NCBI RefSeq assembly: GCF_023920705.1
Contig: NZ_CP094657.1
Span: forward strand, 2,170,001-2,234,000
Length of the DNA stretch: 64,000 nt
Origin: Acinetobacter sp. XS-4
GTDB lineage: Bacteria > Pseudomonadota > Gammaproteobacteria > Pseudomonadales > Moraxellaceae
Direction of reading: 5' to 3'
Below the pieces are notes generated by a model that had not been told where the DNA came from, did no database searches, and worked only from the letters and a program-made list of their open reading frames with translations. A program made the position numbers and the translations under genes. Shown here one piece after another: positions 10,275 through 17,507 of this stretch. Positions within the stretch are counted from its first letter, which is position 1. Each line of letters starts with the position of its first letter.

Positions 10275-10556
10275 TTAGCACTTAGCAAATTCTTTTAAAA
10301 AAGCCCACGGAAAAATCCCTTTATCATGCCCATCACTAAAACAAATTTGGGCCCCATATCCTTGGTCGAACATAGCTGTCACTTCAACATTTTGATCTTC
10401 AATTTTAATTTGCTTAATTCGCTTCGCTCGGCAAAAGCCACATGGGCAAATTTCTCTTAAATTTTGATAACCCAGAGATACGCTTAAACCATCGGTCCAG
10501 ATAAAGTGCACCTGCTTATTTGTAGTATCGACACGAATATCAGGTCTGACTTGCAT
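10275..10556 (-). CDS. DUF971 domain protein
   Basis: A 93-residue protein formed entirely of a DUF971 domain (related to the N-terminal domain of gamma-butyrobetaine hydroxylase). The LREICPCGFCRA cysteine cluster likely binds zinc or iron. The WTDG (20-23) and DGHDKGIFPWAFL segments are family-typical. In other bacteria DUF971 domains occur beside Fe-S or Mrp-like proteins, suggesting a metal or cluster-related accessory role (inference). It is the last gene of the GntR-to-DUF971 operon and its start overlaps the end of the HEAT gene by 17 bases. Confidence 0.85.
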   Translation of the reverse strand: MQVRPDIRVDTTNKQVHFIWTDGLSVSLGYQNLREICPCGFCRAKRIKQIKIEDQNVEVTAMFDQGYGAQICFSDGHDKGIFPWAFLKEFAKC

Positions 10557-11538
10557 ACTTCACCTCACCAATTTGATTTAATCCAATACGAATCGCTTTT
10601 CGTACTTCTGGGTCGGAGTCATTTTGATGTTGTTCTAATAGATTCTGAGCTTCTGATGTGCCAATTTCACCGAGTGCTAAAGCAACCTCTTTACGTAAAT
10701 TGCTAATTTCATGATTAAAGTTATCAGACAAATGAGCAACTGCCAGACGCGACTTGAGTAACCCTAAGCTTCGAACTGCGGCAATACGTACTTGCCAATA
10801 TAAGTCAGATAAAGCATGAATTAAGGGAGCTTCGAGCTGAACGATATGTAATTTTCCAATCGTAAGTGCAGCTTCGACTCTTAGTTGCCAACTTTCCGAA
10901 GTCAAAGAATGTTGAAGTGCTTGGATAACCCCAGCTGATATGCTCTGACTATAGGCCAAACCACCTGTTGCAATGCGGCGAACCTCATCATCTACATCTG
11001 TTTCAGCAGTTTTCGCCAATATCCTAATCGCTTGGTCTTGTTGTAACCAACTTAATGCGCTGACTGCCTCACGGCGCACAAGAGCATCTTCATGATGTAC
11101 CAAAGCAGATATCTCTGTGAATAATTGCTGTGGTCGTAAAGGTTTTAAAGCACGTAAAATTGCACCAAGAGCAAAAGTATCCGTATGCTTTAAATAAGGG
11201 GCCAGTATTTGAGCTGATGCCGCATTTTTTACTTCACTTAAACTTTGACTGGCAGCTTGTTTCACATTCACATCTGTATCAAATAAAGCTTGAGCCAATA
11301 CTTGTAAACTGGTTGGATCCTCCCAACTTTCTAACTTTTTTGCCGCCTCTTCACGAACTAAAGCTGAAGAGTCATGTTGCAATGCAGCATGTAACCACGG
11401 GAGTAAATCTGGATTTTCTTCATCGCCAATATTCATTAAAGCGACAAAGCGAATCTTTTCATCTGTGTGATTAAGCTGTGCAAGAAATTCCTGATTATAT
11501 TCATCGAGGTCATCTAAAGCTTGATAATAAAAACTCAT
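10540..11538 (-). CDS. HEAT-repeat protein
   Basis: A 332-residue all-helical protein made of about nine HEAT repeats. The repeating pattern D-x-x-VR-x-x-A-x-x-L is visible at about residues 60, 90, 155, 187, 220, 250 and 310 (for example ALVREEAAKKL, ALVRREAVSAL, WQVRIAAVRSLGLL). No enzyme motif is present. HEAT proteins of this kind act as scaffolds or chaperones for cofactor enzymes (phycobilin-lyase-type repeats). Here it sits between the ABC ATPase (4-base overlap) and DUF971 (17-base overlap), so it is translationally coupled and probably assists the flavoprotein/ferredoxin of the same operon (inference). Confidence 0.85.
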   Translation of the reverse strand: MSFYYQALDDLDEYNQEFLAQLNHTDEKIRFVALMNIGDEENPDLLPWLHAALQHDSSALVREEAAKKLESWEDPTSLQVLAQALFDTDVNVKQAASQSLSEVKNAASAQILAPYLKHTDTFALGAILRALKPLRPQQLFTEISALVHHEDALVRREAVSALSWLQQDQAIRILAKTAETDVDDEVRRIATGGLAYSQSISAGVIQALQHSLTSESWQLRVEAALTIGKLHIVQLEAPLIHALSDLYWQVRIAAVRSLGLLKSRLAVAHLSDNFNHEISNLRKEVALALGEIGTSEAQNLLEQHQNDSDPEVRKAIRIGLNQIGEVKYASQT

Positions 11539-12374
11539 TCGTATTCCTTAATTTGTGATTTCTTTCCAAGCCCTAGAGGATTTAAGCGGCTTAACTCTTC
11601 TTGTTGAGTGGCTTCTTTTAAAGTCTGGATGCAATGTTTTTTAATAGCTGTAAATTCACTACTTGTTACAAGCTCAACGTCTCTTGGACGTTCAAACTTA
11701 AGCGGAATTTCTTCAATAATTCGCCCTGGTCTATGACTCATAATCAAGACTCGGTCAGCTAAAAAAAGTGCCTCATCAATATCGTGGGTAATAAATAAAA
11801 CCGACGTTTGGATTTCTTGCCAAATTTCGAGTAATAGCATTTGCATTTTTAAACGAGTTTGAGCATCTAAAGCACCAAAAGGCTCATCCATTAATAAAAT
11901 ACGGGGTTGATTAATCAGTACTCTCGCAATTTCAACTCGTTGCTGCATGCCACCAGAAAGTTCAGCTGGAAATTTATGTTCAAAACCTTTAAGCCCGACC
12001 AGATCAATCATTTTCTTAGCTTGTTCAATACGCTTTTGTTTGGCGATGCCTTTCATTTTTAAACCAAAGGCAATATTTTCAAGCACGCTTTTCCATGGAA
12101 ATAAGGTATGTTGCTGGAACACCAAACCTCTGTCTGGGTGTGGTTCAAGGATAGATTCATTATCGACCGTTAAGGTCCCAGAACTAATCGGTAAATGTCC
12201 TGCCAAAGCACCTAATAATGTGGATTTACCGCAACCAGATGGGCCAAGTAGACATATAAACTCGCCCGGTTGTATTTCGAAATTAACCCGATCTAATGCC
12301 TGAAAACGATTTTTAGCTTGCCCTAAATGTAGCGATAGATTTTGAATACGCACATGGCCTTGTGTAATTGACAT
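11535..12374 (-). CDS. ABC transporter ATP-binding protein (SsuB/TauB/NrtD type)
   Basis: A 279-residue ABC ATPase of the nitrate/sulfonate/taurine group. Walker A GPSGCGKST is at 44-52, Q-loop at QQHTLFPW, signature LSGGMQQR at 139-146, Walker B ILLMDEP at 159-165 and the switch His at 197 (FITHDIDEA). It powers the adjacent permease. The start is one base beyond the permease stop and its end overlaps the HEAT start by 4 bases. The substrate is inferred only from the binding protein and the reductase genes. Confidence 0.92.
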   Translation of the reverse strand: MSITQGHVRIQNLSLHLGQAKNRFQALDRVNFEIQPGEFICLLGPSGCGKSTLLGALAGHLPISSGTLTVDNESILEPHPDRGLVFQQHTLFPWKSVLENIAFGLKMKGIAKQKRIEQAKKMIDLVGLKGFEHKFPAELSGGMQQRVEIARVLINQPRILLMDEPFGALDAQTRLKMQMLLLEIWQEIQTSVLFITHDIDEALFLADRVLIMSHRPGRIIEEIPLKFERPRDVELVTSSEFTAIKKHCIQTLKEATQQEELSRLNPLGLGKKSQIKEYE

Positions 12375-12375
12375 T

Positions 12376-16714: not shown

Positions 16715-16742
16715 TGTAAAATCCTTATTTTTATCTGAGTTA

Positions 16743-17486
16743 TTAACGATGAATACGTAAACGGTACTGGAAGGTATCGCCCGAGAAATAGAGATATTCA
16801 TAGTCAATCGGTTGGCCATTTGCGTCATGAGTCAAACGCTCAACCCGTAATACCGGAGTTCCGATTTCGACTTGTAATAAAGCTTCTAATTCTTCATCCG
16901 CCACCGTGGCATCAATGCTTAAATCCGCATGTCCTAAAGGGATGTCGCACTCTTGTTCTAATGCCTTGAAAATATCGGTTGTACGTAAATCAATCGCTTT
17001 TTCTTTAAGTTTCAAACCAATATGTTCTGGCAAATAAGTCAACTCATAAGACACTGGCTGACGGTTGAGTAAACGAACACGTTGAATTTCATATACATTG
17101 GCTTTAACAGGTAACTTTAATTTGGGTACTACGTGCATTGGGATTTGCTTAAGCTCGGCCGAGATGACACGGTTTAAAATTTCGTGACCAGCAGATGACA
17201 TTGCTTCTGCAAAACCCTGCAAACTTGAAATGTTCTGGAATGTTTTTGGCTTACTTACAAAGGTCCCTTTACCTGGCACCTTAAAAATATAGCCTTCCAA
17301 CTGTAATTGGTTGAGTGCTTGGCGAACTGTGATTCGGCTTACACCAAACTGTTCAGCAAATTCATTTTCAGATGGAATTTGACTCAACACGGCATATTCA
17401 CCATTTACAATTTTGTTAAGGATGAGTTCCCTTAACTGATCATAAAGAGGCTTATGATTTTTGGGATCTTGGGGTAGCTGGCTCAC
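16743..17486 (-). CDS. GntR-family regulator with UTRA domain (HutC subfamily)
   Basis: A 247-residue repressor-type regulator. The winged helix is at about residues 12-78 (PLYDQLRELIL, SENEFAEQFGVSRITVRQAL, GYIFKVPGKGTFVS). The UTRA ligand-binding domain is at about 95-240 (VYEIQRVRLLNRQPVSYELTYL, IDYEYLYFSGDTF). It uses a GTG start with AGG about ten bases upstream. It is the first gene of the operon, 28 bases ahead of the flavoprotein. The perfect palindrome TGTTATAACA sits 12 bases upstream of its start, suggesting autoregulation of the whole operon. Confidence 0.9.
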   Translation of the reverse strand: MSQLPQDPKNHKPLYDQLRELILNKIVNGEYAVLSQIPSENEFAEQFGVSRITVRQALNQLQLEGYIFKVPGKGTFVSKPKTFQNISSLQGFAEAMSSAGHEILNRVISAELKQIPMHVVPKLKLPVKANVYEIQRVRLLNRQPVSYELTYLPEHIGLKLKEKAIDLRTTDIFKALEQECDIPLGHADLSIDATVADEELEALLQVEIGTPVLRVERLTHDANGQPIDYEYLYFSGDTFQYRLRIHR

Positions 17487-17497
17487 GGCTCACAACC

Positions 17498-17507
17498 TGT
17501 TATAACA
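17498..17507. promoter_or_regulatory. candidate GntR operator
   Basis: A perfect 10-bp palindrome, TGTTATAACA, just upstream of the GntR start. It has the GT-TA-AC symmetry common to HutC-type operators. The position fits repression of its own operon and possibly of the divergent chrA. Confidence 0.4.

What the first reader, a model, noticed from the sequence alone, without database searches (positions are those of the whole stretch)
10275..17507. Eight-gene GntR operon joining an AprA-like flavoprotein, ferredoxin, anion-type ABC importer, HEAT protein and DUF971
Seen: eight minus-strand genes with gaps of 28, 20, 19, 34 and 1 bases, then overlaps of 4 and 17 bases, so one transcript. Known: AprA/SdhA-type flavoproteins with 2x[4Fe-4S] partners do reductive or oxidative sulfur chemistry; SsuABC/TauABC-type importers carry organosulfur anions. 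Inference: a dedicated uptake-and-reduction system for a sulfur compound or oxyanion, in which HEAT and DUF971 proteins mature or scaffold the redox pair. A parallel to asfAB of Pseudomonas putida is suggested from memory. The substrate, and the roles of HEAT and DUF971, are not known to me.
Basis: partly seen in the sequence, partly recalled or inferred. Interest (0 to 1): 0.75.

Follow-up and report, generated by a model that had tools for sequence, protein, structure and literature searches.

The report
Conserved AprAB-like reductase and importer operon
Eight neighbouring genes in an Acinetobacter genome build an importer plus a two-part flavin and iron-sulfur enzyme that is labelled as succinate dehydrogenase but does not look like one; the same set recurs in other bacteria and may help cells scavenge an unknown sulfur compound.

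Summary
In detail: eight minus-strand genes with the stated gaps and overlaps. It is not chance: ferredoxin and HEAT genes stay beside the flavoprotein in 72 of 72 named loci with enough flank, and also in rhizobia, cyanobacteria and Tsukamurella (HEAT fused to the flavoprotein there). The importer's binding protein occurs in 20 of 398 sampled Pseudomonadota genomes, all among the 21 carrying the flavoprotein, once unlinked. The flavoprotein is no succinate dehydrogenase: its nearest solved relatives are PAPS and APS reductases, but the APS-reductase arginine (R265) is leucine in 118 of 118 rows. In some lineages neighbouring ferredoxin and ferredoxin-NADP reductase genes suggest that electrons flow to the substrate, and neighbouring sulfite/sulfate exporters, Ssu/Tau genes, metX/metY or a sulfur-starvation encapsulin operon suggest sulfur. 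Exporters and electron genes were not found beside the window's closest relatives. In cyanobacteria the Fe-S carrier Mrp takes the DUF971 slot. A conserved palindrome precedes GntR. I read it as an inducible import-and-reduction system for an organosulfur anion; the substrate is unknown. The Asf parallel holds at superfamily level only, judged on an unverified AsfA candidate.

The parts
16743..17486 (-). GntR/HutC-type regulator with UTRA ligand domain, first gene of the operon
   Evidence: PF00392 + PF07702; orthologue beside FP in 69 of 72 named loci with enough flank
17498..17507 (.). palindrome TGTTATAACA, core of a predicted GntR operator (extended 20-bp form CAASTTGTYATRACAASTTG, here 17493-17512)
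   Evidence: within 1 mismatch in the 200 bases before GntR in 66 of 87 sequences, 0.8 expected from base shuffles; best site of genome G000, 1 mismatch
14981..16714 (-). FP: FAD flavoprotein, AprA-like catalytic subunit, NCBIfam NF006131/PRK08275
   Evidence: 1135 bits, cut-off 587; nearest solved chain is the PAPS reductase alpha subunit 8a8o
14715..14960 (-). FD: AprB-like 2x[4Fe-4S] ferredoxin subunit, 8 Cys + Trp58
   Evidence: Fer4 families; aprB 36 bits, below its cut-off; the 8 Cys and Trp58 in 118 of 118 rows
13265..14695 (-). SBP: Ssu/Tau-type periplasmic binding protein with a C-terminal NosL-like stretch (about residues 380-471)
   Evidence: NMT1_2; NosL PF05573 reaches its cut-off in orthologues L107 and L144, 18.8 bits here; profile against NosL structure 7og7 E 0.05; residues 31-343 match SsuA and TauA, with nitrate/bicarbonate domains level in one ranking
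12376..13230 (-). ABC permease
   Evidence: PF00528; ntrB 142 bits and SsuC 129 bits, below cut-offs
11535..12374 (-). ABC ATPase
   Evidence: PF00005; TauB 261 bits, below cut-off
10540..11538 (-). HEAT-repeat protein, probable partner or scaffold of FP
   Evidence: matches positions 611-894 of the FP-HEAT fusion model NF010374, 72.7 bits; fused to FP in L109
10275..10556 (-). DUF971 protein, probable Fe-S maturation helper
   Evidence: PF06155 60.5 bits; a Mrp/NBP35 gene follows HEAT in L107, L110, L147 and L150 (domains tested for L107 and L110)
10243..10273 (-). intrinsic terminator-like hairpin, 12 pairs

Best explanation
An inducible import-and-reduction system for a small organosulfur anion. 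SBP and the permease/ATPase bring the anion in. In the cytosol FP (FAD) and FD (two [4Fe-4S]) form an AprAB-type reductase; electrons come from NADPH through ferredoxin-NADP reductase and ferredoxin, pass the FD clusters and Trp58, reach the FAD and reduce the substrate, freeing sulfite or a lower-valent sulfur for cysteine synthesis. HEAT is a third subunit or scaffold of FP; DUF971 (Mrp in cyanobacteria) helps load the clusters. GntR represses its own operon at the palindrome until its UTRA domain binds the substrate. Shown here: gene set, conservation, co-occurrence, fusion, residue changes, a conserved palindrome. Inferred: sulfur substrate, reductive direction, electron route, product, roles of HEAT and DUF971, GntR binding and repression.
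For: Unit conserved: 66 of 72 named loci carry all seven partners; FD and HEAT 72 of 72. SBP in 20 of 398 genomes, all among the 21 with FP, unlinked in G028. FP-HEAT fusion in Tsukamurella beside GntR, FD and ABC genes. Nearest solved relatives PAPS and APS reductases; N57 and H352 kept, AprA Arg265 is Leu243 in 118 of 118 rows. FD: 8 Cys + Trp in 118 of 118. Electron supply: FdxA and/or ferredoxin-NADP reductase in 13 of 38 further loci, one of them the source of the queries. Sulfur: TauE and/or YeiH in cyanobacteria, Aquabacterium and family f48; metX and an O-acetylhomoserine sulfhydrylase in Nostoc; LLM monooxygenase, 3-mercaptopropionate dioxygenase and rhodanese in Paraburkholderia; sulfate/sulfonate ABC genes and TauD in Sinorhizobium; unlinked importer beside Ssu-type genes in G028; encapsulin/cysteine desulfurase operon in 6 of 12 Acinetobacter loci examined. 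Palindrome.
Against: No biochemistry or expression. Losing Arg265, which holds the sulfo group in AprA (recalled), argues against an AprA-like sulfo substrate. The FdxA, ferredoxin-NADP reductase, TauE and YeiH queries hit none of the 79 named loci searched, which are the window's nearer relatives. In the window's genome the encapsulin gene is about 310 kb away. Neighbourhood counts are not independent, several marker genes came from loci that were then counted, and no random-locus control was run. SBP and ABC scores stay below the cut-off of every named-substrate model listed; nitrate and bicarbonate domains match the SBP model as well as SsuA in one ranking. The importer genes are absent beside FP in L028, L036, L097, L106 and L164, and in G324 (L164) no SBP was found in the genome. 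The palindrome was not found within one mismatch in 21 of 87.
Confidence: 0.45

Rival explanations
1. An Asf-like electron chain: FP and FD pass electrons to a separate monooxygenase that cleaves aromatic or other sulfonates, rather than acting on the substrate themselves.
For: Asf is described as a reductase/ferredoxin pair with a substrate-binding protein and ABC transporter, needed with ssu for aromatic sulfonates (PMC4267179, passages). LLM, NtaA or TauD oxygenase genes lie near some loci.
Against: The AsfA candidate is only a distant relative. The oxygenase queries used recur in few of the 79 named loci searched: TauD 8, LLM 1, NtaA 0; other oxygenases were not looked for. FP keeps invariant N57, H352 and H381 like AprA, odd for a mere electron carrier.
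Confidence: 0.2
2. Same parts, but a non-sulfur substrate (for example a nitro, phosphonate or carboxylate anion or a cofactor precursor); the sulfur neighbours are coincidental.
For: Relatives of this binding-protein type carry nitrate, bicarbonate, pyrimidines and PQQ, and nitrate/bicarbonate domains are level with SsuA in one ranking; the AprA Arg265 is lost; the regulator is GntR/UTRA.
Against: Sulfur-related genes beside the system in cyanobacteria, alpha-, beta- and gammaproteobacteria with different gene orders; SsuA and TauA head the sequence and Foldseek lists for SBP.
Confidence: 0.25
3. The enzyme works in the oxidative direction, as in dissimilatory AprAB, detoxifying a reduced sulfur compound and exporting the product through YeiH, TauE or ChrA-type transporters.
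For: Exporter genes beside it in some lineages; in the window a TSUP-type transporter lies 6 kb away and ChrA is near the operon in 7 of 12 Acinetobacter loci examined.
Against: A dedicated importer and ferredoxin-NADP reductase genes fit reduction better; the encapsulin association fits starvation rather than excess.
Confidence: 0.1

Closest known systems
Dissimilatory APS reductase AprAB and the Methanothermococcus PAPS reductase (8a8o)
   Same: FAD alpha subunit of the fumarate reductase family + small beta subunit with two [4Fe-4S] and a Trp in the electron path; Asn and His of the site kept (PMC10322725, section 9 read)
   Different: AprA Arg265, Trp234 and Gln145 positions changed (Leu, Tyr, Val); encoded with importer, HEAT and DUF971; score 189 bits against the aprA cut-off 641.75
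NCBIfam NF006131 / PRK08275 and its fused form NF010374 / PRK13800
   Same: FP is a clear member (1135 bits); the fused form equals FP + HEAT
   Different: the family name, fumarate reductase/succinate dehydrogenase subunit, does not fit: the SDH catalytic Arg is Gln280 and the flavin-linking His is Gly47 (mapped by hand; residue roles recalled; Gln280 also)
asfRABC of Pseudomonas putida S-313 / AsfAB of Cupriavidus metallidurans
   Same: reductase + ferredoxin + binding protein and transporter (PMC4267179 and PMC2864759, passages)
   Different: LysR, not GntR; the candidate AsfA is a distant relative; HEAT and DUF971 are not mentioned in the passages seen
SsuABC / TauABC importers
   Same: binding protein, permease and ATPase of the same superfamily; SsuA and TauA are among the best structural matches
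   Different: below every equivalog cut-off listed; extra C-terminal NosL-like stretch; no SsuD or TauD in the operon
Mrp/NBP35 Fe-S carriers and HCF101 (DUF971-containing, recalled)
   Same: Mrp follows HEAT in four cyanobacterial loci
   Different: DUF971 here is a free 93-residue protein without the ATPase

Membership tests
NF006131 / PRK08275 flavoprotein family | score above the curated cut-off of 587 bits over full length | tested here: met
   1135 bits, residues 1-573
AprAB (APS reductase) | FAD alpha subunit with two-cluster ferredoxin beta subunit encoded together | tested here: met
   adjacent genes, 8 Cys + Trp in FD in 118 of 118 rows
AprAB (APS reductase) | substrate-binding residues of the site, Arg265 above all (roles recalled) | tested here: not met
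   Arg in 20 of 20 AprA-like rows, Leu in 118 of 118 family rows
AprAB (APS reductase) | aprA (TIGR02061) curated cut-off of 641.75 bits | tested here: not met
   189 bits
AprAB (APS reductase) | reduces or forms APS | not testable with these tools
   needs enzyme assay
Succinate dehydrogenase / fumarate reductase | catalytic Arg and covalent-flavin His (recalled), sdhA cut-off | tested here: not met
   Gln280 and Gly47 at those positions (mapped by hand); 158.6 bits against 567.3
asfRABC arylsulfonate cluster | LysR-type regulator | tested here: not met
   GntR/UTRA against LysR in PMC4267179 (passages)
asfRABC arylsulfonate cluster | AsfA orthology of the flavoprotein | tested here: inconclusive
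   only a CH34 candidate without locus tag could be compared: 24-28% over the FAD domain, 56 bits to NF006131; P. putida AsfA not available
SsuABC/TauABC | score above a named-substrate model | tested here: not met
   SsuA family 113.5 against 163.5, TauB 261 against 357, SsuC 129 against 347 (for the ATPase the best 25 of 187 models were shown)
NosL domain | PF05573 cut-off of 24 bits in the SBP C-terminus | tested here: inconclusive
   reached in 2 of 8 SBPs (28.1 and 24.1 bits), below it in 5 including the window (18.8), not listed in L109; profile to 7og7 E 0.05
DUF971 / GBBH-like_N | PF06155 cut-off of 22.8 bits | tested here: met
   60.5 bits

The most novel reading that the evidence does not exclude
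A reductive, oxygen-independent route of organosulfur (perhaps sulfonate) desulfurisation in aerobic bacteria: a ferredoxin-driven AprAB-fold enzyme with a new active site, hidden under the name succinate dehydrogenase, with its own importer carrying a SBP-NosL fusion and its own maturation helpers (HEAT, DUF971 or Mrp).
Probability: 0.25. Interest if true: 0.85.

Novelty: new variant of a known kind. Interest (0 to 1): 0.6.

Why it matters
NCBIfam labels the flavoprotein family as a succinate dehydrogenase/fumarate reductase subunit. If the reading is right it is a ferredoxin-dependent acquisition pathway for a sulfur compound, found here in soil and plant-associated proteobacteria, some cyanobacteria, an actinobacterium and Acinetobacter. 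It gives a dedicated context for DUF971 and HEAT proteins, and a predicted operator and a binding protein with which the substrate can be found by direct test.

Tried and rejected
Paper searches for the system itself: HEAT repeat + DUF971 + others (356 papers with 3 of 5 terms, 20 listed, none of the 20 with DUF971), PRK08275 (none), HEAT repeat + sulfonate + sulfur starvation + fumarate reductase + Pseudomonas (one listing on PA14, not read), HEAT + oxidoreductase + Rhodococcus + sulfur (115 papers, 20 listed), SDH flavoprotein + HEAT + sulfonate + sulfate limitation (none), NosL + substrate-binding protein + ABC + sulfonate (two listings, not read). The library holds CC-licensed PMC papers only, so absence there is weak. 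The main texts of two actinobacterial sulfur-omics papers were searched for the gene names without a hit for this system.

Rfam search for a riboswitch that would name the substrate: none at gathering score in 7 relatives and two sub-threshold hits around the operon (E 0.16 and 0.31).

Structure of FP: the model was poor (mean pLDDT 58), so no fold search was made; the active-site comparison rests on sequence alignment. The SBP model was good (85). NosL is not among the 50 structural matches listed in either ranking, where the C-terminal part was barely tested; the NosL call rests on sequence profiles.

AprA and SDH membership: rejected (see membership test). Coexistence of an AsfA-like gene: searched in the 21 FP genomes, only a partial match in G289, so FP cannot be shown to be a paralogue living beside AsfA.

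A wider GntR regulon: with up to 3 mismatches the operon site was found in 8 of 10 genomes and missed in G130 and G170; the other 7 sites equal the 7 of the reversed-pattern control.

Rows dropped: 8 of 80 named loci were left out of the count (7 short flanks; L031 under 9 kb, also absent). In one search, two AprA-like rows were left out for length and 10 of the other 18 were wrong reading frames; redid all 20 and replaces it.
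Full report
OBSERVATION. An independently annotated A. baumannii record carries the same genes with the same lengths. The host is an Acinetobacter: GntR, FP and HEAT are 100, 99 and 96% identical to those of A. calcoaceticus ANC 3811. FP has no close second copy in its genome; the two other matches are 27 and 23% identical.

CONSERVATION. 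Of 72 with enough flank, FD and HEAT are beside FP in 72, DUF971 in 71, GntR and each ABC gene in 69, and all seven partners in 66. L028, L036 and L097 lack the importer there but keep FP-FD-HEAT-DUF971, so HEAT and DUF971 travel with the redox pair, not with the importer. These include rhizobia, Methylobacterium, Burkholderiales, Acidithiobacillus, cyanobacteria and Tsukamurella. Many loci are close relatives, so the counts are not independent events.

CO-OCCURRENCE. In the same sample of 398 Pseudomonadota genomes, FP (E up to 1e-200) is in 21, and in 0 of 14 control genomes; the SBP (E up to 1e-60) is in 20. All 20, G000 included, are among the 21. The exception is G324, with FP but no SBP. 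Each search scored only the three or four best first-look candidates per genome in most genomes. In G028 the importer lies about 2.9 Mb from FP, beside Ssu-type genes, so the pairing does not rest on linkage alone.

THE ENZYME. FP belongs to NCBIfam NF006131 (1135 bits, cut-off 587), and the fused model NF010374 is FP + HEAT: the window's HEAT protein matches its last third, and Tsukamurella has an 893-residue fusion, next to GntR, FD and ABC genes. The nearest solved chains are the PAPS reductase alpha subunit of Methanothermococcus, then AprA, then SdhA. That PAPS reductase is an alpha2beta2 enzyme with FAD, two [4Fe-4S] and a Trp proposed in the electron path, and its authors propose attack of flavin N5 on the substrate sulfur (PMC10322725, section 9 read). 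On a joint alignment, the columns of AprA N74, H398 and a further His are kept here (N57, H352, H381), while R265 is L243, W234 is Y212 and Q145 is V128. The 20 AprA-like rows, from genomes found with scores below the NF005331 cut-off, have Arg in 20 of 20. Across 118 family rows (window and 117 loci), N57, Y212, L243, H352 and H381 are invariant, as are the eight Cys and Trp58 of FD. The roles of the AprA residues are recalled. So the fold and wiring are AprAB-like, but the substrate site is different.

ELECTRON SUPPLY. FdxA and/or ferredoxin-NADP reductase genes lie within 13 of the 38 further loci: L106, L111, L112, L166-L171, L173, L174, L177, L178. The query genes came from L112. A. caldus has FdxA and a large oxidoreductase with a match to PRK06567 below its cut-off (607 of 1072 bits). 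None of the 79 named loci searched has them. I take this as support, not proof, that electrons flow towards the substrate.

SULFUR CONTEXT. Cyanobacteria: YeiH and TauE beside the core; Nostoc: metX and O-acetylhomoserine sulfhydrylase. YeiH is in 8 of 38 further loci, the query coming from one of them, and in 0 of 79 named loci; TauE likewise in 0 of 79. Aquabacterium has TauE next to GntR. Paraburkholderia has an LLM monooxygenase, 3-mercaptopropionate dioxygenase and rhodanese, also in L101. Sinorhizobium has sulfate and sulfonate ABC genes and TauD. In 6 of 12 Acinetobacter loci examined, L028 in inverted order, the operon is within 8 kb of rhodanese, serine acetyltransferase, SrpI encapsulin and its cysteine desulfurase; the S. 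elongatus system is reported as upregulated in sulfur starvation (PMC8346489, passages). In the window's own genome that gene is about 310 kb away. No control with random loci was run, so these are leads that agree, not a statistical test.

IMPORTER. TauA and SsuA head the sequence and Foldseek lists for SBP. With the SBP model (mean pLDDT 85) SsuA has the highest Z (30.9), but nitrate/bicarbonate transporter domains are within 1, a tie. Residues after about 380 resemble NosL (PF05573): at or over the cut-off in two of eight proteins tested, and E 0.05 against a NosL structure. In three cyanobacterial loci the LysR-type regulator is fused to a SBP-like domain (28-37% to the SBPs of these operons), which suggests that the regulator senses the imported ligand.

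MATURATION. In L107, L147 and L150 a Mrp/NBP35 gene overlaps the end of HEAT by 8 bases, as DUF971 does here by 17; in L110 it follows HEAT without overlap. The FeS_assembly_P and ParA domains were tested for L107 and L110. This substitution is the best clue that DUF971 serves the iron-sulfur clusters.

REGULATION. TGTTATAACA stands at 17507-17498. Within one mismatch it lies in the 200 bases before GntR in 66 of 87 sequences (0.8 expected from base shuffles, which ignore relatedness). The exact form TGTYATRACA is there in 34 of 86 loci, and its only two other hits in 1.78 Mb fall inside the same operon, in L048 and L105. The extended 20-mer finds the operon site in 8 of 10 genomes; the 7 other sites equal the 7 of the control. 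GntR is thus probably a local regulator of this operon; binding is not shown.

ASF. PMC2864759 (passage) lists AsfA/AsfB as Rmet_4334/5 in C. metallidurans; that these lie on NC_007974 is recalled. On that replicon two flavoproteins match FP. One, in L154, has a ferredoxin right behind it and a Ssu-type importer close by; the other, L155, has only a weak ferredoxin-like match. Without locus tags L154 is a candidate. It is distant from FP.

VERDICT. A real, conserved system, not described in the papers that my searches could reach, with AprAB-like wiring and a changed active site. Sulfur import and reduction is the best-supported reading (0.45); the substrate needs experiment.

Noticed in passing
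L107:7676-9676, L147:6403-8439, L150:6661-8676: Cyanobacterial LysR regulator fused to a domain related to the operon's ABC substrate-binding protein; may sense the imported ligand directly.
   Followed up: partly
window 23338-26075: TSUP-type transporter (23338-24129) and a protein that reads to me like a DUF442 + sulfide:quinone-oxidoreductase fusion (24420-26075; not tested by profile) 6-9 kb from the operon; an annotated relative names them TSUP transporter and TIGR01244 phosphatase, with an MBL-fold hydrolase beside them.
   Followed up: no
window 17626-19077: Chromate efflux (ChrA-type, TIGR00937) transporter next to the operon; a homologue is near the operon in 7 of 12 Acinetobacter loci examined, in different positions.
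   Followed up: partly
L032-L036, L028: Family 2A encapsulin (SrpI) with cysteine desulfurase cargo, serine acetyltransferase and rhodanese beside the operon in several Acinetobacter species.
   Followed up: partly
L110:9995-16150: In Nostoc, HAD, methyltransferase, GNAT and VOC genes stand between FP and FD; metX and an O-acetylhomoserine sulfhydrylase are close by, resembling an organosulfur salvage cluster.
   Followed up: no
L106 (plasmid pTcM1): FP-FD-HEAT-FdxA plus a 1153-residue oxidoreductase on a mobilizable Acidithiobacillus plasmid, with no ABC importer in the stretch read.
   Followed up: no
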